Assembly (NCBI GenBank): GCA_027486795.1
Contig: JAIXOI010000012.1
Span: 66,425 to 117,077 of the forward strand
Reading direction: 5' to 3'
Length of the DNA stretch: 50,653 nucleotides
Source of the DNA: Sphingobacteriales bacterium
GTDB taxonomy: Bacteria > Bacteroidota > Bacteroidia > Chitinophagales > CAIOSU01
Shown one piece after another: positions 24,046-39,793 of this stretch. A model generated the notes under the pieces. That model saw nothing but the letters and a program-made list of their open reading frames with translations, searched no databases and had not been told where the DNA came from. Made by a program: the position numbers and the translations under genes. The stretch's first letter is position 1, and each line of letters opens with the position of its first letter.

Positions 24046-26871
24046 ATGAGACACAACCAACTCACTTTTAGGGATTTACTATCCCGTTATCAAAGATACA
24101 CGCGCAAGCTTGCACGCGTGTGGAACAACAAAGAGCGCAGGGAGTTTTTCCTCAAAAAAATTGACCAGCTTAAGTTTAAGCTGGGCGATATGAGGAACGC
24201 GACCCGAACCGCCATTGCCGGAGGTGCTATTGCGGTAGGGTTGCTCGGTGCCACCGATGCCAAGGCCCAACAGTTTGCAACTCAAGGTGTGAATCCATTT
24301 GGTTTAACATCGGTGAACTACCAAAACGCTCCGGAATTTGCCGACTTAGATGGAGATGGTGACTTTGATATTTTGACCACGAATTACGGCGAAGCAACTT
24401 ACTTTCAAAATACTGGCACTGCCTCTAGCCCTGCTTTTGCTGCACCAGTAAATAATCCATTCGGTTTGTCAGGCTATCTAGGCAATAACCCTAAGTTGGC
24501 TTTGGTTGATATTGACGATGACGGCGATTTAGATTTGTTTATAGGCGATTATAACGGCACCATAGGTTTTTATCAAAACACTGGTACTACATCAGCGCCA
24601 GTATTTACTTCAGGTGGCAATTTTCCTTTCGGCCTTCAAGGCACCGGTACTTATTATAGCTACGGTTTGTCGCCAGAGTTTGCCGATTTGGATGACGACG
24701 GAGACTTTGACTTGTTGCTTACCCAAAGTTATCCATCATCAGCTTACTATTATCAAAATACTGGCGACTCTGCTACGGCAGTGTTTGCCGCGCCTATAGC
24801 TGGTTCTAGTTTCGGTGTATACACCAACTATAACGAAAACCCATCGGTGGCAGATGTTGATGCAGACGGGGACTTAGATTTGTTCCTTTTTGGTAGTAAC
24901 AGTCTGCAATTGCTTGAAAATATTGGCACTGTAACTGTACCCGTATTTGCTGCACCGGTTGCCAACCCATTTGGATTAAATCTTGATGGATTAGTAAATA
25001 CCGTTGGTGGCTTTGTTGACCTCAATAATGATGGTAAGCTGGATGCTGGACTTGGGGACAATTCAGGTGCTTTTTACGTTTACTATGGCCATGGTATCAC
25101 TAGCATTGTGCCAGGCAGCATTACCAGAGTGTGCGAAGGCAGCACTGGAACCTTTAGCGTCTCAGCCGATGAAGAAGATGGAGCAGCACTTACCATTACC
25201 GCGGTTTCGTCCAATCAATCGGTGGTAGCCGATGCACAGATTGTAGTTACGGGCACCCAACCCAATTACCAAGTAAGCGTTACGCCTGTAACTGGCTCTA
25301 GCGGTCTTACGGCAACCATTACCCTTAATATTTCTGATGGTAGTGTAACCATACAGAACTCTTTCAAGGTTGCTATAGAGTCGCCTGCGAATTTCAACAT
25401 CACTGCATCCGTTTGCACTGGAGATAGCGCAGTGCTTGGTGCACCTGGCGAGGTGGTTTGGTACGATGCCCCATCGGGCGGCAACTTACTTGCGGCAACC
25501 GATAGCTTTAGCACGGGTGCGCTTACCCAAGATACCACTTTCTATATCGCTACCATTGATAGCGTATTGCAAATTGATAGCTTGGATTTTAGTATCAGCG
25601 CCTTTGCCGATTACTCCGACGAAGGAGGCGACAACCGCGCAGGTATTACTGTTACCAACAACTATGTATACCTTAATGGCGATGATAGTTTGGTGCGCTA
25701 CTCTTTGAACATGGCAAACTTTATTGTTTTGCCTCAGCAAGATGGCTTGTTTAGCGACCTTGCTACTGGTCAATTGTATTCCCTTTGGAATGCAACTGAC
25801 AACCTAGCACCTGAGGGTACCGATATTGATAGTTTCTGGGTTGACGAGCTAGCTTTGCTGAATGATGTGCTCGATACGGTTTCATTTATTACCCTTAGCA
25901 CCCCGGTAAAAGTAGGCGGTGGCTATGCCGATGATGACCAAGGTGGCATTTATGCTGGCGAGGGCTTTGTTGCGCTTTACTCTGGCTCTGTTGATAGCAG
26001 TGTTTATATCATTGAACTACCTTCGGGCCAAGTGACCAACCTTGGGCGTTTAGATTTCTTTGATCGTTCTGAAGCAGAAAACTGGGCCAACTGGGGCTTT
26101 GCGAGCCGATCTGACAATGGGCAGGTTTCTCTGTACAGCTTCAATCGCGATGCCGATGAAGTATACCGTATTGGTGTGCAAACTGGTATTACCGAAACCA
26201 TATACACTTTTGGTGAAGAGCTTACCGATGGTTGCCTTGCTTACTCTCCATGGTTGAACAGGGTGTATTTGGACTGGGAATACGACGTTACCTTCTTTAC
26301 TGGCGACGAAAATGCTGGATATGTTGATGCCATTGGCGGATTAAAAGGTATAGAAGGTGCTTGCCGCGAGGAAGTAACTGTAACGGTAAGTGAAGTATCG
26401 TTTACTGATTTAGTGGTAAACGAAACTGATGGCGATAGCACTGGTTCAGTGATTGTAGATAACGTTTCTGGAGGTACAGCCCCATACACTTACACTTGGA
26501 GCAATGGCGAAAGTACTGCCAGCATAACCGACCTAAACGAAGGAACCTACACTGTAACGGTTACCGATGCCAATGGCTGTAGCAAGTCGGCCACATTTGA
26601 GGTTGATAATATTGTAGGCATTACTACCATCAATACCTTGGCTGCTAGGTTGTACCCTAACCCAACCACTGGCCAGTTTGTTGTAGAAGTAGACCAAGCC
26701 GGCCCAACCCAAGTAAAAGTAATGGACCTTGCTGGTCGTTTGGTAGTTGCCACCCAAAGCAACGATGGCAACACCATCAGCCTTGACTTGGGCAATGCTT
26801 CGGCTGGTGTGTATTTTGTGCACATACAGCAAGACAATGCCAATACCATTAAAAAACTGATTGTTGAGTAA
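24046..26871 (+). CDS. T9SS type A cargo with FG-GAP/VCBS repeats and an SprB-type repeat
   Basis: 941 residues. Residues 1-54 are an unusual basic extension (many Arg/Lys), followed by a hydrophobic segment (TAIAGGAIAVGLLGATDAKA, cleavage about 75). Then come four FG-GAP/VCBS-like units with calcium-loop sequences (ADLDGDGDFDILTTNYG, VDIDDDGDLDLFIGD, ADLDDDGDFDLLLTQ, ADVDADGDLDLFLFG), an Ig-like region, a less clear beta-rich part, one SprB-type repeat (GGTAPYTYTWSNGE) and a Por-secretion tail (LYPNPTTGQFVVEV to IKKLIVE). It is probably secreted to the cell surface by T9SS. The terminator and a decayed copy of the tail follow. ATG at 24190 (Met49) is an alternative start. Confidence 0.87.
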   Translation: MRHNQLTFRDLLSRYQRYTRKLARVWNNKERREFFLKKIDQLKFKLGDMRNATRTAIAGGAIAVGLLGATDAKAQQFATQGVNPFGLTSVNYQNAPEFADLDGDGDFDILTTNYGEATYFQNTGTASSPAFAAPVNNPFGLSGYLGNNPKLALVDIDDDGDLDLFIGDYNGTIGFYQNTGTTSAPVFTSGGNFPFGLQGTGTYYSYGLSPEFADLDDDGDFDLLLTQSYPSSAYYYQNTGDSATAVFAAPIAGSSFGVYTNYNENPSVADVDADGDLDLFLFGSNSLQLLENIGTVTVPVFAAPVANPFGLNLDGLVNTVGGFVDLNNDGKLDAGLGDNSGAFYVYYGHGITSIVPGSITRVCEGSTGTFSVSADEEDGAALTITAVSSNQSVVADAQIVVTGTQPNYQVSVTPVTGSSGLTATITLNISDGSVTIQNSFKVAIESPANFNITASVCTGDSAVLGAPGEVVWYDAPSGGNLLAATDSFSTGALTQDTTFYIATIDSVLQIDSLDFSISAFADYSDEGGDNRAGITVTNNYVYLNGDDSLVRYSLNMANFIVLPQQDGLFSDLATGQLYSLWNATDNLAPEGTDIDSFWVDELALLNDVLDTVSFITLSTPVKVGGGYADDDQGGIYAGEGFVALYSGSVDSSVYIIELPSGQVTNLGRLDFFDRSEAENWANWGFASRSDNGQVSLYSFNRDADEVYRIGVQTGITETIYTFGEELTDGCLAYSPWLNRVYLDWEYDVTFFTGDENAGYVDAIGGLKGIEGACREEVTVTVSEVSFTDLVVNETDGDSTGSVIVDNVSGGTAPYTYTWSNGESTASITDLNEGTYTVTVTDANGCSKSATFEVDNIVGITTINTLAARLYPNPTTGQFVVEVDQAGPTQVKVMDLAGRLVVATQSNDGNTISLDLGNASAGVYFVHIQQDNANTIKKLIVE

Positions 26872-26895
26872 TCCTCGATAATAGTTTAGCGCATA

Positions 26896-26937
26896 AAAAG
26901 CGGCGGTTCCTGGTGGAGCCGCCGCTTTTGTTTTTTG
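26896..26937 (+). terminator. Terminator of the T9SS cargo gene at 24046
   Basis: A 15-bp stem (26896-26910 with 26915-26929, loop TGGT) followed by a T-rich run to 26936. A near-identical copy lies at 27173. Confidence 0.92.
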
Positions 26938-26976
26938 TCCAATCGGTGCCATTAAATTGTAGCGGTATCCTAAGCC

Positions 26977-27147
26977 TGCCCAACCCAAGTAAAAGTAATA
27001 GACCTTGCCGGGCGTTTAGTGGTTGCCACCCAAAGCAACGATGGCAAAACCATCAGTCTTGACTTGGGTAATGCATTGGCTGCTGCATATTTTGTGCACA
27101 TACAGCAAGACAATACCAACAACATTAAAAAACTGATTGTGGAGTAA
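26977..27147 (+). pseudogene. Decayed duplicate of a T9SS type A sorting domain
   Basis: A fragment of 56 codons plus a stop that repeats the end of the gene at 24046-26871 and continues to its terminator. The frame starts near CPTQVKVIDLAGR and ends NNIKKLIVE followed by a stop codon. There are scattered substitutions but no frameshift within the fragment. It has no start codon or upstream coding sequence in frame, so it cannot be made as a protein on its own. It arose by tandem duplication of the 3' end with the terminator, and has since decayed. Confidence 0.85.
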
Positions 27148-27172
27148 TACTCGCTAACAGTTTAGCGCATAA

Positions 27173-27213
27173 AAAAGCGGCGGTTCCTGGTGGAGCCGCC
27201 GCTTTTATTTTTA
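27173..27213. terminator. Duplicated bidirectional terminator
   Basis: Copy of the stem-loop at 26896, again with A-rich flank on the left and T-rich on the right. It lies 16 bp past the stop of the minus-strand gene at 27229, so it can serve both converging transcripts. Confidence 0.88.
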
Positions 27214-27228
27214 CTTAATTGGTGGGGG

Positions 27229-29988
27229 CTATTTGCCCACCACCACTTTATCTTGGTACCATGCTCCGCCGCTTTGGATGCGTACGATATACATTCCGTT
27301 ACTAAGGTCGCTGGCATTAAAATCAGCTTGCAATACATTGTTAAAACTATTACTTAATACTTTACGGCCCATGATGTCGTATAGCTCAACAGCACTTATG
27401 GGCAATCCGCCAACATTAACCGACAATAGGCCAGTAGTTGGGTTCGGGAAAACATTCACTGGCACTGTTACGCGCTCTGCAATGCCCACGGTGCGCTGTG
27501 TAGCAACCGTATTGGTATATATCGGTGGATTAAAATCGAAGTAAATGGCCGCTTGGTTGGTTACTTCTTCCAATTGCGTTTTGTCCAGCACTTCAATATC
27601 AAACTCCACAAAGCCGTGGCTCAATGGCTCATTTACGTTGCTATCGGGCAATAAGATGTTGTTGAACACGAAATGCACGATGCGCTCTTCGTAAAACTCA
27701 ATCTCCACTTTGTGGCTAGCGGCAATAAACCGGAAAGAAGAGATGTTCAAATCGCTATCGAGCGTGTCGCGCACCACAATGTTGAAGGCAGTGTCGGTAC
27801 CCGTATTCTGAAAACGGATTAAATAACGTAACAACGTATCTTCAACCATTGCTGGCCCATCAATGCTCTCGCTGCTGGCATTAAATACTTGTTTGTCGTT
27901 AGGGTCATAAGAGCCCACAATAACTGTGTTGCAGCTAGCGGTGTTGTTGGTCAGGTCTTGGTCGGTAGCGTTTAGCAGATTGATGCTACCCGTGTGCGTA
28001 AGCACTTGGCCCAAACTTACGGTAGGTATTAATGGCAAGGTTACATATACACCAAAGTTGAGGGTTTGTTGTGGCAGCAAACCCGTTACGCTGTAGTATA
28101 TGGTGGTAGGGCCATACGTAACACTATCTATAGTAACGCCCGCCGGAAGAGTGAAAGTAGGCACAGCCGTAACAGCACTACTAAGCACTACGCTACCCGA
28201 AACATTAGCAGCATATATACCATAATTAGAGATGGTAACACTATTGTATTGCACAAAGCCAGGCCTTGCTACACCGCAGTAAACCGTTATGCCCACATTG
28301 TTAGGCGTAATGCTGGTTCTCGGAAAATCCAAGCCACCAATGGTGTTGGTATCTATCACGTTTACCAACAAGGTATCAATGCCACAAGTATCAATCAAAG
28401 TAGCGCCTGTGCCATATTGCGATACCACTGCATTGTAACTGCCCAGAGACACAAAAGCGCTCCAAACACCACTAGCATTGGTGTAGGCATAATAGCCCGG
28501 TTGTATAGATACCAAATAGCCCGAAAGGCCTAAATCGCTGCTAGTGTAGCTGCAGTCGCCATCCAAATCAACATAAACCCTGCCGCCAATGTGGGTGTAA
28601 CAGCCTTGATCAACGGTAACGAAACGGTGCACCACTGCCGAGCAACCATTGGCATCGGTAACGGTTACGGTATGCCCACCTACTGGCAAGCCGGTGGCGG
28701 TATCGGTAGTGCTGCCGTTGCTCCAAAGGTAGGTAAATGGCGCATCCCCATTTTGGGGGGTTGCTACCAAAGTGCCACCACTGCCAATGCAATTTGCAGC
28801 GCTGGTTTGGTCTACGTTAACTTGCAGGCTATTGTTATTTACTACCGTAGTTTGCACCAATATGCAACCTGAGTTGTCGGTAACCGTAACTATGTAAACA
28901 CCAGCCGACAAGCCCGCAATAGTGTTAGAAGTATCGCCATTGCTCCATTGGTAACTAAAAGGAGGGTTGCTGCCGCTTACGGTAATCTGGCTAGAGCCAT
29001 TGCCGGCACCTATGCAGGTTTCGGGGGTGGCCAGCAACGATAGTATGGTAAAACTGCCGCTAGCTACTGTTGCGGTTTCGGTAGCAATACAGCCGTTTGC
29101 ATCAGTTACGGTTACAGTGTAGTTGCCAGCAGGTAAGTTACCCACTTGCGGGGTTGTACTGCCGTTGCTCCATAAATAAGTATATGGCCCTGCGCCACCG
29201 CTTACTGAAAGTACCGCCGTGCCGTCGTTGCCGCAACTAGCCGGGGTGGTAGAGGTTAGCAAGAGAAGGGTTGGCTGGTTGGCCACGGTTACGGATTGTG
29301 TGGCCGTGCATCCAATATTGTCGGTAGCGGTTAAGAAGTAAATGCCATCAGCTAAGCCGCAATTGGTAGGGCCAGTAAATGTGTTGCTCCATACATAGGT
29401 TGCACTAGTGCCTGCAGCGGTAGCCACCGCACAGGCAGTGCCCGCACAACTATCATACACCACAGCTACGCTTATGTTAAGTGTTCCTTGGCCTATAAAA
29501 ACGGTATCGCTTTCGGCGCATCCGTTGGCATCTATTACGCTTACCGCGTACACACCAGGCGCTAAGCCAGATACTTGGGGAAAATTACTTCCGTTGCTCC
29601 ATAAATAAGTGTACGGTAACGTACCACCGGTAGCACTCACCCATGCCGAGCCAAAAGCAGTTGTGCATGAGCCGCCAGTGCCTGAAGCTACGGCAGATAA
29701 TACAGTGGGTTGAGTTACAGTAGTTGAGCTCGCAACCGTGGTGCCTATGTTATCGGTTACGGTAATAGTATAAGTACCAGCAGGCACACTAACTTGGTTT
29801 GCCGTAGTGCTTCCATTGCTCCAAACGTAGGTATAAGGGGCACTACCGCCAGTTACAGTGGTAATGATACTGCCATCGTTACCAAAGGCACAATTAACAT
29901 TGTTGGTAGTAAAGCTAACGGTAGGCTGGGCAAAGACCAGCGCAAATACGCATAGCAGACCCGTAAGAGTAAGTAACAGTTTTTTCAT
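27229..29988 (-). CDS. Large T9SS type A surface protein with six SprB-type repeats
   Basis: 919 residues from the ATG at 29988. A signal peptide (MKKLLLTLTGLLCVFALVFA) is followed by six SprB-type repeats of about 70-80 residues, each with the GG-APYTYLWSNGSTT and AG-YTVTVTDANGC elements. Next come an SdrD-B-like segment (GGRVYVDLDGDCSYTSSD), a region with the SYDPNDKQVF and YLIRFQNTGTDTA motifs common in Bacteroidota surface proteins, and a type A sorting domain (VFPNPTTGLLSVNVGG to YQDKVVVGK). The family includes the gliding adhesin SprB, so a role in adhesion is plausible. A GTG at 30075 would add a 29-residue leader and is rejected: it would put a second hydrophobic stretch before the true signal. 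Confidence 0.9.
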   Translation of the reverse strand: MKKLLLTLTGLLCVFALVFAQPTVSFTTNNVNCAFGNDGSIITTVTGGSAPYTYVWSNGSTTANQVSVPAGTYTITVTDNIGTTVASSTTVTQPTVLSAVASGTGGSCTTAFGSAWVSATGGTLPYTYLWSNGSNFPQVSGLAPGVYAVSVIDANGCAESDTVFIGQGTLNISVAVVYDSCAGTACAVATAAGTSATYVWSNTFTGPTNCGLADGIYFLTATDNIGCTATQSVTVANQPTLLLLTSTTPASCGNDGTAVLSVSGGAGPYTYLWSNGSTTPQVGNLPAGNYTVTVTDANGCIATETATVASGSFTILSLLATPETCIGAGNGSSQITVSGSNPPFSYQWSNGDTSNTIAGLSAGVYIVTVTDNSGCILVQTTVVNNNSLQVNVDQTSAANCIGSGGTLVATPQNGDAPFTYLWSNGSTTDTATGLPVGGHTVTVTDANGCSAVVHRFVTVDQGCYTHIGGRVYVDLDGDCSYTSSDLGLSGYLVSIQPGYYAYTNASGVWSAFVSLGSYNAVVSQYGTGATLIDTCGIDTLLVNVIDTNTIGGLDFPRTSITPNNVGITVYCGVARPGFVQYNSVTISNYGIYAANVSGSVVLSSAVTAVPTFTLPAGVTIDSVTYGPTTIYYSVTGLLPQQTLNFGVYVTLPLIPTVSLGQVLTHTGSINLLNATDQDLTNNTASCNTVIVGSYDPNDKQVFNASSESIDGPAMVEDTLLRYLIRFQNTGTDTAFNIVVRDTLDSDLNISSFRFIAASHKVEIEFYEERIVHFVFNNILLPDSNVNEPLSHGFVEFDIEVLDKTQLEEVTNQAAIYFDFNPPIYTNTVATQRTVGIAERVTVPVNVFPNPTTGLLSVNVGGLPISAVELYDIMGRKVLSNSFNNVLQADFNASDLSNGMYIVRIQSGGAWYQDKVVVGK

Positions 29989-30028
29989 TAGTGTGGTTTT
30001 AAAGGTTAAAAGCAGTACTACAACCAAC

Positions 30029-30046
30029 CAGCAAGTATACTTGCTG
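30029..30046. promoter_or_regulatory. 18-bp perfect palindrome upstream of the SprB-repeat gene
   Basis: CAGCAAGTATACTTGCTG is a perfect palindrome 41 nt before the ATG at 29988. It may be an operator or lie in the 5' leader as a hairpin. No exact TAnnTTTG was found next to it. Confidence 0.5.
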
Positions 30047-30181
30047 AAATAGCGCTCACTTAGAAAAAACCACACGGGCAGTGGCTGGCACTATATTGAT
30101 ATGAACATAAACATAGGATTATTTATGATAACTCACAAGGACTCTTATGAAATAATTTGCTATCTGTAGTTTTACAGAAAT

Positions 30182-36896: not shown

Positions 36897-37381
36897 AACC
36901 AATTAACACCAATAAAGCATTCACACTTTAAAATCGCAATCGTCACCCATTATTTGCAACCCCATAAACAGCCACTAGGCTGCATCTGTATTTGAATTCC
37001 CACCAATCCAAATACAGGACCTGCCTACTGACTATCAATTGAGTAACAACCCTAAGTTATAAACCAATTTTATATTTTACAAACTTTAAGATGCAAAATA
37101 GGGTTTTGTCGTGTACAACACATTCATTATCAGGGAATTAAAATTTTAAAATATTGCCTCGCGCTATACCCTTCAATAGAGGAACCAGACAAACGGCAAT
37201 GAAATGGCAATTGACCTTTGGAACCATAAAATAGCCATTAACTATTGGCTGCAAAACACCCAAAACCGCACCAATACTATATAAAAGTACACGACAAAAC
37301 TCTGGTTGGTCCATAGTCAATAGCCCATAGTCGATGGACAAATCAACCAATAACTAGTCAACTAATAACCAATCAACTATC
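36897..37381. repeat. 485-bp spacer with a MITE-like inverted repeat and degenerate repeats
   Basis: No gene is convincing here; a 70-codon frame on the minus strand matches nothing known. A 14-bp inverted repeat (37103-37116 and 37287-37300) surrounds about 170 bp and shares the CACGACAAAAC word with the 33-nt repeats near 11110. A 9-bp hairpin lies at 36986-37017. Degenerate words follow at 37308-37379: CCATAGTC at 37311 and 37325, AATCAAC at 37341 and 37371, and CTAGT/TAATA words. Confidence 0.55.
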
Positions 37382-39793
37382 TTAAAGGCCTTTGAGCGCT
37401 TCTCGCTGCCAGCTGTTCCAGGTTTGGCTGTTGTAGTAATCCTTAATCAGGGCTTGGTAGGCCGTTTGCCCGTTAAAGTGTTTAAGCAAACCCAACGCAG
37501 GGTTTGCCAAGCGGGTGTTAGGGTTTAGGCTGGCATCAAACAAATTAACTACTAAGGTTTTATCGAGGTAATTGAGGCGCCTGAGAACATCCATGGCGTT
37601 GGTGCGCGTGCGAAACTCGTAACTATTGCTAGTAAGCGCTACCAATTGCGGCAGGTACTTGTCGCGTTCGGTGGCAATGGCAATCTCTAGCCAAGCAATG
37701 CGGATGCTCTGGCCCATGCCCACTTCGCCTTTGGTGGCCTCTAAGTAACGCTTCGTGTTGGCCGGGAAATTGGTAGTCAACTTCACCAAGGCCGTTTCTA
37801 GCACCTTGTATGAAGAGTCGGTGAGGAACTGCTCATAGGCCGCCAAATATTTGGGGTGTATGGTGGCCACGTTTTCAATAGCTTTCAGGCGAACTTTGGC
37901 ATCCTTGTCGGCAAGTAAGGTCACATATACCTCATTATCCAGTTCCATATCGTTTATAAGCTGCTCTACCACCTCGGCGCGCACAGCCCAGAAAGGCTCT
38001 TTAGCATACAACTCCACCAGCTTATCGCGCTTTTTTGAAAGGGGTACCGAGCGCAATGATACCAAGGCATCGTAGCGGTCTATCATGTTTTTGGCACCCA
38101 GGGCTTGGGCTAGCAGCATTGGGGGCTCCTTAGAAAATTCGACGCTCTTCACTATCTCCGAGTTCGGGTCGAAGAGCACATAGGCTATTTTCTTGCTGCC
38201 TTCATTGGTAATGGTTACCGTGTGGCTGTGGTTCTCAATCCACTCCGTAACCGAGGCATAAGTGCCGTCGGTGTAGTGCACTTCAAACACTATCGGCATA
38301 CGGAAAAGGCCCACCACATCGTCCATGGCATGCACCTGCTTTACGGTGAATACCGTGGCACCAGCACTTGCTGGGCCAAAAGGTACTTCTAGGTAGCTCA
38401 CTTCATATTTCGGCTCCCCGCCCTTATGTATCCACTGGTCGAAAAACCAATCGAGATTAATACCCAACTTGTCGTTAAAGGCCGCCCATAGGTCAAAGGT
38501 GCTTACATTGCTATAGCCGTGCTTTTGCAGATAGTATTGCAGGGCCACATTAAACTGCTCCTTGCCCACAATGTAACGCATCATATCAATCACTAGCGAG
38601 CCTTTAGGGTAGTGGCGTGCACTGCCGGGGTTGCTGTGGCCTACCGGTAAGTTGTTGCTTTTAGCCGCGCTTAGGGTGCTCCAAAGTTCGGTTCGACAGT
38701 TCCAGCGGTAGTGGTCCTCACCAAAAATAGAGCGCTCAAAGTGTTTCTGATATTGGGTTGCAAAGCTCTCGTGCAACCAGTGGTTCTCTGGCGAGCGGGT
38801 GGTAATGTAGTCGCCAAACCATTGGTGGGTAAGCTCGTGTGCATTAGTACCGATGTAGTACCTATCCAAAAACGCACGCTTATCCACGTTATAAAAGTCG
38901 CCGAAGATAGTGGCCGAGGTATTTTCCATGGCGCCGTACATAAAGTCTTGCACCATTACTTGGCTATACTGCTGCCAAGGATATTTCACACCAAACTCTT
39001 GTTCAAAAAAGTCCATCATTTCGGCGGTGTATCGGTAGGTAGGCTCGGCACGGTCGGCATCTTCGGGGTAGTACCAATTGTTTATCACCACCCCACCCTT
39101 GCTCTTAACGGTTTGCACGGCATATTTGCCAATAGCAATCATTACCAAGTAAGCGCTGTGCGGCTTATCCATGGCATAATGCCAGGTTTTAGTATTGTCC
39201 TTATTCAACTTCTCCGCTACTAGGTTGCCGTTGCTCAGTACTTGGTAGTCCTTGTCAAAAGTCACTTTTACATCGGTCAGCATTTTGTCGCCCATATCGT
39301 CAAAAGTCGGGAACCAATGGCGGTTGTCTATGCCTTGGCCTTGTGTCCAAATCTGTTTACGGCTGAGGTTATTCGGGTCGTTCCAGCCGATGAAGTACAG
39401 GCCCTTGCGCGGGGCAGCTTTGTACTTAATAGCGAGGGTATGGGCTATGCCCCAAGTAAGCGGCTTATCGAAACGTATAGTGATGCCCTTGCTATCAACG
39501 GTGTACTTTACTTTGTTTTTATCGAGGGTAACCTCTAGCACCTCAATGCCAGGTGCATCCAAGAAGAGGGTATCTACCACTTTTCGCAAAGGGGTAAAGG
39601 TATGCACTACGGTGCCATTTACAACACCCTTGGTTGGCTCAAAACTCACATCAATGCTGGTCTTGGTAATGTCCACCACTCGCTCGCGAGCGTGGGCGCC
39701 TTCATCTTGTATATAGCAATCGGTAGTTTGGGCAATTATCGGGGTACCAAAAGCCAACATTGCAGCAAGGAACAGATAAAAAAAGCTTCTCAT
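37382..39793 (-). CDS. M1 family aminopeptidase with HEAT-like C-terminal
   Basis: 803 residues with a signal peptide (RSFFYLFLAAMLAFGTPIIA). The GAMENTSATIF motif binds the peptide N-terminus and the zinc site HELTHQWFGD plus HESFATQ has both His and the distant Glu. The C-terminal 250 residues are helical repeats similar to HEAT/ERAP1 domains (LRSVPLSKK, AIENVATIHPKYLAAYEQF). The enzyme trims N-terminal residues in the periplasm or outside. There is no T9SS tail. A promoter -7 element (39846-39853) precedes it. Confidence 0.95.
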   Translation of the reverse strand: MRSFFYLFLAAMLAFGTPIIAQTTDCYIQDEGAHARERVVDITKTSIDVSFEPTKGVVNGTVVHTFTPLRKVVDTLFLDAPGIEVLEVTLDKNKVKYTVDSKGITIRFDKPLTWGIAHTLAIKYKAAPRKGLYFIGWNDPNNLSRKQIWTQGQGIDNRHWFPTFDDMGDKMLTDVKVTFDKDYQVLSNGNLVAEKLNKDNTKTWHYAMDKPHSAYLVMIAIGKYAVQTVKSKGGVVINNWYYPEDADRAEPTYRYTAEMMDFFEQEFGVKYPWQQYSQVMVQDFMYGAMENTSATIFGDFYNVDKRAFLDRYYIGTNAHELTHQWFGDYITTRSPENHWLHESFATQYQKHFERSIFGEDHYRWNCRTELWSTLSAAKSNNLPVGHSNPGSARHYPKGSLVIDMMRYIVGKEQFNVALQYYLQKHGYSNVSTFDLWAAFNDKLGINLDWFFDQWIHKGGEPKYEVSYLEVPFGPASAGATVFTVKQVHAMDDVVGLFRMPIVFEVHYTDGTYASVTEWIENHSHTVTITNEGSKKIAYVLFDPNSEIVKSVEFSKEPPMLLAQALGAKNMIDRYDALVSLRSVPLSKKRDKLVELYAKEPFWAVRAEVVEQLINDMELDNEVYVTLLADKDAKVRLKAIENVATIHPKYLAAYEQFLTDSSYKVLETALVKLTTNFPANTKRYLEATKGEVGMGQSIRIAWLEIAIATERDKYLPQLVALTSNSYEFRTRTNAMDVLRRLNYLDKTLVVNLFDASLNPNTRLANPALGLLKHFNGQTAYQALIKDYYNSQTWNSWQREALKGL

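What the first reader, a model, noticed from the sequence alone, without database searches (positions are those of the whole stretch)
26697..27213. Tandem duplication of a T9SS sorting domain with its terminator
The end of the cargo gene (about 26697-26871) and its terminator (26896-26937) are repeated at 26977-27147 and 27173-27213. The copy lacks the start of the gene and carries substitutions but no frameshift, ending in the same IKKLIVE and stop. Unlike a normal gene duplication, only the exported tail and terminator were copied. The copy is a ready source of a sorting domain for a new cargo gene by recombination, and the second terminator now serves the converging gene at 27229.
Basis: partly seen in the sequence, partly recalled or inferred. 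Interest (0 to 1): 0.52.

Follow-up and report, generated by a model that had tools for sequence, protein, structure and literature searches.

The report
Decayed duplicate of a secretion tail
The end of one exported-protein gene and its stop signal were copied side by side long ago and the copy is now most likely a decaying relic, but elsewhere in the same genome such export tails are shared between unrelated genes, as if cargo bodies were swapped over a constant tail.

Summary
The duplication is real: 26672-26936 recurs at 26948-27213 (about 90% identical), covering positions 22-75 of a T9SS sorting domain, the stop and the terminator. It is old and local. Sister G002 has the same junction, but its copy 2 holds two in-frame stops; the closer sister G003 has one tail and one terminator before the same converging gene. 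Copy 2 has no start, no signal peptide and no promoter above chance, and none of the other 148 scored tails shares its DNA. I read it as a relic; a donor role here is unsupported. The idea behind the finding does gain support elsewhere in this genome. Eleven genes of two unrelated body families share the last 240 nt at 83-96%; similarity starts about 250 nt before the stop, and a tail tree rejects grouping by body, AU p 1.3e-6. At one site G000 and G003 carry bodies 24-25% alike, over a tail 91.5% identical and between flanks 95-97% identical. So sorting tails seem to act as constant recombination segments in this genus, but the window's copy is not evidence for that.

The parts
24046..26871 (+). 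T9SS cargo gene, 941 aa: FG-GAP repeats, Ig_7, SprB repeat, C-terminal Por_Secre_tail
   Evidence: ORF; Pfam; NCBIfam TIGR04183
26650..26865 (+). live sorting domain of the cargo gene (residues 869-940)
   Evidence: PF18962 E 1.3e-18, profile 1-75 of 75
26672..26936 (+). copy 1 of the duplicated unit (sorting domain part, stop, terminator 1)
26896..26929 (+). terminator 1 hairpin, 15 pairs, followed by a T run
26937..26973 (+). spacer and duplication junction, shared with G002
   Evidence: alignments; no BLAST match over 9 nt to the cargo gene; likeness of its first part to the flank behind terminator 2 is by eye only
26948..27213 (+). copy 2 of the unit; weak similarity at its 5' edge (20 of 29 bases)
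26974..27147 (+). 57-aa orphan frame, Por_Secre_tail positions 22-75; follows a stop directly, no ATG/GTG/TTG before one inside the domain, no signal peptide
   Evidence: two stops in the G002 ortholog
27173..27206 (+). terminator 2 hairpin; it also folds on the minus strand, beyond the stop of the converging gene
   Evidence: the pattern scan lists it on the + strand only
27229..30075 (-). converging T9SS cargo gene (SprB repeats, DUF7619, Por_Secre_tail); the ORF is listed from a GTG, a more likely start is an internal ATG near 29988

Best explanation
A stretch of about 276 bp, running from inside the sorting domain of a T9SS cargo gene through its stop codon and terminator, was duplicated in tandem before the split of G000, G002 and G003. 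The copy lies behind terminator 1, has no start and no signal peptide, and so is most likely neither made as an exported protein nor selected as one. It has drifted: two stops in G002, loss of conserved residues in G000, absence in G003, most simply by recombination between the direct repeats. While it lasted it may have exchanged short tracts with the live tail. Shown: the duplication, the shared junction, the stops in G002, the single copy in G003. Inferred: the order of events, loss by repeat recombination, lack of expression, exchange of tracts.
For: Repeat and register. Both copies and the same junction in G002, on a contig that ends just behind copy 2; one copy and one terminator before the same converging gene in G003. 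G003 is nearer to G000 than G002 is: 71 informative sites against 43 and 40, ultrafast bootstrap 98, and the long matches of a second region are mostly 92-94% for G003 and 86-91% for G002. Two TAG stops in the G002 copy; in G000 the copy reads ALAAAYF where the live tail reads ASAGVYF. No further copy of this tail among the 150 scored. Five of 7 informative sites conflict with simple descent, P 0.002-0.0035 in a plain simulation.
Against: Codon-position counts do not separate copy 2 (5, 6, 17) from the live tails (0, 1, 7), Fisher p 0.22, so decay in G000 itself is not proven, and the copy is still open there. Only three genomes inform the history, the site counts conflict, and G003 could be ancestral if copy 2 moved between lineages by recombination. 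The exchange signal weakens once uneven rates are allowed: P 0.04-0.05 for five conflicts and 0.07-0.08 for the three sites that unite copies within a genome. No expression data were at hand.
Confidence: 0.82

Rival explanations
1. Copy 2 is a spare sorting domain kept as donor material for building new cargo genes by recombination.
For: Tail exchange between unrelated cargo genes is indicated in this genome; orphan tails of that family exist, e.g. C26:58609-58914; possible exchange between the window's two copies.
Against: None of the other 148 scored tails shares this tail DNA. The copy has stops in G002 and is absent in G003. It lacks the first 21 of 75 profile positions, so it could supply only part of a tail.
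Confidence: 0.06
2. Copy 2 is what remains of a complete second cargo gene whose body was deleted.
For: A whole-gene tandem duplication followed by one deletion would leave a similar end product; whole-gene tandem arrays of cargo genes exist in this genome (C42, C14).
Against: G000 and G002 share the same short spacer, and no piece of it over 9 nt matches the cargo gene's body or 5' flank (best E 0.47); but a clean deletion could leave no such trace. G003 and G001 have a single gene here.
Confidence: 0.1
3. Copy 2 is a short expressed peptide or an RNA with a role of its own, such as insulating the converging gene.
For: The 3' part with the hairpin is less changed (4 of 64) than the coding part (18 of 172), and the hairpin folds on both strands.
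Against: Promoter-like sites are at chance level (2 found, 1.5 expected in shuffles, neither between the copies; other promoter types of Bacteroidota are not covered by that scan), terminator 1 lies upstream, and G003 has only one terminator.
Confidence: 0.05
4. Assembly artefact of a metagenome-assembled genome.
For: G002's contig breaks right behind copy 2.
Against: The copies differ by about 10%, and the same junction is in two separate assemblies.
Confidence: 0.02

Closest known systems
Tandem partial gene duplication leaving a 3' pseudogene fragment (general knowledge, no paper seen)
   Same: Direct repeat of a gene end in head-to-tail order, decay, and absence in a sister: ordinary bacterial repeat dynamics.
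   Different: The unit happens to hold most of a secretion signal and a complete terminator.
T9SS type A sorting domain (PF18962 / TIGR04183)
   Same: Live tail and copy 2 both score above the curated cut-offs. The review PMC10202324 (passages seen) calls the CTD necessary and sufficient for secretion, also when fused to heterologous proteins.
   Different: Copy 2 lacks profile positions 1-21 and any signal peptide.
Porphyromonas gingivalis domain rearrangement and allelic exchange in surface proteins (PMC5266723, passages seen)
   Same: Recombination among surface-protein genes, T9SS cargoes included; gene conversion invoked.
   Different: The passages describe shuffled adhesin modules and alleles between strains; here (other loci of G000) the constant piece is the sorting domain with stop and 3' flank, and whole bodies differ.
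Recombination between tandem paralogues of T7SS immunity genes in Firmicutes (PMC9484751, title and start of abstract in a search listing)
   Same: Homologous recombination between neighbouring copies as a source of diversity.
   Different: Different secretion system; immunity genes rather than a shared terminal domain of cargoes.

Membership tests
T9SS type A sorting domain (Por_Secre_tail) | Full-length match to the domain profile at the protein's C terminus (live tail) | tested here: met
   Profile 1-75 of 75, E 1.3e-18
T9SS type A sorting domain (Por_Secre_tail) | Same, for copy 2 | tested here: not met
   Only 22-75 of 75, although 35.7 bits is above the cut-off of 27; two stops in the G002 ortholog
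T9SS cargo (copy 2 as a gene) | N-terminal signal peptide plus C-terminal sorting domain in one gene | tested here: not met
   The frame begins behind a stop at 26971-26973 inside the domain; signal peptides judged by eye, no predictor was available
Intrinsic terminator | GC-rich stem followed by a T run, more stable than shuffles | tested here: met
   Both hairpins on the + strand, z -5.7 and -6.8; activity not testable here
Tandem duplication | Head-to-tail copies, shared junction in a relative, single copy in others | tested here: met
Recombination cassette / donor copy (window locus) | Sequence of the copy found at the end of another gene | tested here: not met
   0 of the other 148 scored tails of G000 at 80% over 110 nt; 92 of the 242 candidates were not scored
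Tail exchange between cargo genes (other loci of G000) | Tail phylogeny independent of body family, sharp junction at the domain start, flank moving along | tested here: met
Tail exchange between cargo genes (other loci of G000) | Exchange observed within a population or in the laboratory | not testable with these tools
   One genome per species is held

The most novel reading that the evidence does not exclude
In this genus the T9SS sorting domain, with its stop codon and 3' flank, serves as a constant recombination anchor: cargo bodies are replaced over a fixed tail, the tail-plus-flank spreads between unrelated cargo genes, and tail copies sit at genome rearrangement breakpoints. Orphan tails, such as C26:58609 and those of the C17 and C56 arrays, are footprints of that traffic, and the window's duplicate would be one more tail copy open to exchange with its live partner.
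Probability: 0.5. Interest if true: 0.7.

Novelty: new variant of a known kind. Interest (0 to 1): 0.45.

Why it matters
The window's duplication is ordinary. A constant tail that stays while the body is exchanged would explain how new surface and secreted proteins are acquired ready for export, and it can be tested by comparing strains.

Tried and rejected
Whole second gene with deleted body: no spacer match over 9 nt to the gene or its 5' flank; not excluded. Selection on copy 2 by codon positions: inconclusive, p 0.22. Orphan tails as a general feature after cargo genes: 1 of 150 tails has a DNA-level partial copy behind it; the other hits are whole tandem genes (C42, C14) or short repeats and hairpin arms of 16-84 nt. 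Of 8 tails (of 150) in frames under 200 aa, C33, C38 and C41 are small complete genes with a signal-peptide-like start, judged by eye; the rest are C56 (three), C26 and the window's own. A decayed tail frame at C17:2667-2879 turned up in the downstream scan, as did a weak one at C28:4414-4611 in a 162-aa frame, not followed. A reversed-sequence control gave one hit, at E 0.058. Rfam at gathering scores on three loci: nothing. Tail peptide in viral contigs: 8 pattern matches, none a relative. The chance product printed is not used: the loci had been picked by their tails, and the third interval's far end was assumed. The identity of the cargo bodies is meaningless (free end gaps left 7 aligned bases), and its downstream figure had 100 gaps; I use BLASTN and BLASTP instead. 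The orientation of minus-strand loci was wrong for 7 tails and was corrected.

Literature: the searches listed no paper that describes sorting-domain exchange between T9SS cargoes by title or start of abstract; that covers only those terms and that open library. PMC7323717 holds 'concerted evolution' only in a reference title (passages); the passages seen of PMC11285876 concern domain structure and methods.

Full report
Observation. The end of the cargo gene 24046-26871 and its terminator recur head to tail: 26672-26936 and 26948-27213. In the coding part 18 of 172 bases differ, in the 3' part 4 of 64. The copy's frame is open for 57 aa and ends like the original; it scores as Por_Secre_tail over profile positions 22-75 of 75 (E 1.1e-8), while the live tail covers 1-75. 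Both hairpins fold far better than shuffles. Similarity continues weakly to 26672 (20 of 29 bases; P 5e-6 in the register that the repeat finder chose, hence optimistic).

Relatives. The search returned five genomes of the genus. G001 has one tail, the cargo gene at about 75%, and another neighbour downstream. In G004 (78% complete) only short repeat matches to the cargo gene were listed. Over 5 kb of neighbouring sequence G000 groups with G003 (71 sites against 43 and 40; ultrafast bootstrap 98), and the long matches of a second region are mostly 92-94% for G003 and 86-91% for G002. The simplest history is a duplication before the three split and a loss in G003. G003's single tail differs from G000's copy 1 at 13 of 237 sites and from copy 2 at 23 of 236.

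State of the copy. In G002 copy 2 carries two in-frame TAG stops, and in G000 the segment ASAGVYF has become ALAAAYF. Codon positions of the differences are 5, 6, 17 between the two copies 2 and 0, 1, 7 between the live tails of G000 and G002; the contrast is not significant (Fisher p 0.22), so decay in G000 rests on structure (no start, no signal peptide, behind a terminator) and on the G002 ortholog. Of 7 informative sites among the four sequences, 2 fit simple descent, 3 unite the copies within a genome and 2 are crossed. Simulation without exchange gives five or more conflicts with P 0.002-0.0035, or 0.04-0.05 if rates are uneven; for the three uniting sites alone P is 0.01, or 0.07-0.08. 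Differences fixed in both genomes are 8 of 29 at the 5' edge and 2 of 235 elsewhere (p 3e-7), which fits homogenisation of the inner part or an edge that is not homologous. Exchange between the copies is therefore plausible, not shown.

Is the tail a donor? Of 150 Por_Secre_tail matches scored in G000 (150 of 242 candidates; the window's orphan ranks last, so weaker ones may be missing), this tail's DNA cluster has two members: the live tail and the copy. A scan of up to 1300 nt behind each of the 150 tails (6 had under 600 nt because of contig ends) found one DNA-level partial copy, ours; the other longer hits are whole tandem genes at C42 and C14. So the window does not support a donor role.

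What the test uncovered. Another tail does behave like a cassette. Thirteen of the 150 tails form one DNA cluster, and a further gene, C9:918, was found by BLAST, giving 14 places; one 29-aa chance match was dropped. In 11 of the 14 the match runs on into the 3' flank. Eleven genes share the last 240 nt at 83-96%; the other three (C17:2505, C53:99109 and the orphan at C26:58914) share mainly the last 75 nt with them and have a different tail front. The bodies fall into two families. Three genes (C9:4529, C45:108, C26:100870) show no BLASTP similarity (none at E 1, or E 0.22 and above) to eight genes of the ~500-aa family with the same tail type, yet in all 24 such pairs the last 240 nt are 84-96% identical. 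In the nine such cross-family pairs examined, similarity begins 248-260 nt before the stop, about 12-15 residues before the YPNP motif, and in 8 of 9 it runs 46-146 nt past the stop; in one it ends at the stop. That flank is non-coding as far as seen, except for the pair C56:266 and C45:108, where a next reading frame starts at once. In C9:4529 against C56:2334 identity rises from 0.45 to 0.92 from one 25-nt step to the next. Of 67 tail pairs at 80% or more over 110 nt, 31 show no similarity in the 300 nt upstream of the last 240; 25 of these 31 are cross-family, 5 involve the C26 orphan. A tree of 12 tails (11 of G000, 1 of G003; the three with another front left out) rejects the three genes as one clade, log-likelihood 87 lower, AU p 1.3e-6.

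Body replacement. At C28:285960 the upstream side (95.0% over 2187 nt), the tail (91.5% over 248 nt) and the downstream side (97.5% over 1148 nt) agree between G000 and G003, while in the cargo body BLASTN finds nothing beyond 21 nt (E 0.2 at best) and the proteins are 24-26% identical (best E 4e-15, so distantly related). G004 has behind the same upstream gene a cargo gene of the other body family (44% to C9:4529, nothing to the G000 and G003 bodies), up to its contig end inside the tail, so its downstream side is unknown. G001 has the upstream gene but no match to the tail in the 1.1 kb fetched behind it, and G002's contig ends in the upstream gene. Just before the G000 start codon lie 41 bases at 88% to the end of a different tail in the C56 array, as if the body came in from such an array. 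The tail plus flank has one full-length match in G003, none in G001 and G002, and in G004 a match cut by the contig end; G000 has 10 over the full query and more in part (one of the 10, C8:34922, only at 67%). Its spread most simply belongs to G000's lineage.

Rearrangements. Of four such loci compared with G003, one is colinear (C28) and three, all on C26, lie where synteny breaks: the gene at C26:41568, the orphan tail at C26:58609-58914 and the gene at C26:100870. The orientations (+, +, -) fit two inversions between oppositely oriented tails; that is inference, and the loci were picked for their tails. A hairpin repeat follows several of these tails; it has matches in all five genomes of the genus and none in the two others of the family that were searched, and no Rfam family reached its gathering score on three loci.

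Verdict. The window feature is most likely a decaying tandem fragment. Body-family labels are mine; the depositor's name 'Chitinophaga pinensis' for G003's record was not checked. Most of the tail family lies on short contigs (C9, C45, C56, C32), so misassembly there is possible; C28, C26, C17 and G003's C7 are long contigs (54 kb and above).

Noticed in passing
L221, L222, L231 (G003 C7:116.5-118.2 kb, G004 C132:97-98.7 kb, G000 C28:285.9-287.5 kb): Behind the same upstream gene and over similar sorting-tail DNA, three species carry different cargo bodies: 24-26% protein identity between G000 and G003, an unrelated family in G004 (whose contig ends inside the tail).
   Followed up: yes
G000 contigs C9, C17, C26, C28, C32, C45, C53, C56 (L066, L082, L167-L173): Fourteen places share sorting-tail DNA (11 of them over the last 240 nt, 11 with 3' flank) across two unrelated body families; one full-length match in G003, none in G001 and G002, one cut by a contig end in G004.
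   Followed up: yes
L067, G000 C26:58609-58914: Orphan sorting tail without signal peptide (by eye) between a ComM-like gene (name recalled) and another gene, at a synteny break relative to G003.
   Followed up: partly
L066 and L082, near C56:5942, 4119, 2209 and C17:2738: Tail fragments of a second type begin right behind a hairpin repeat ending in a G run and overlap the start of the next cargo gene.
   Followed up: partly
L068, C41:50950-51312: Small gene of 116 aa that is little more than a signal-peptide-like start and a sorting domain: a nearly cargo-less T9SS protein.
   Followed up: no
L075, C14:120867-122008: Neighbouring cargo genes share 80 bases at 98.75% inside their tails, which suggests recent local gene conversion.
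   Followed up: no
window about 37252-37388: Short dispersed repeats of about 50 bases with many partial matches at 80-100% in all four sister genomes searched.
   Followed up: no
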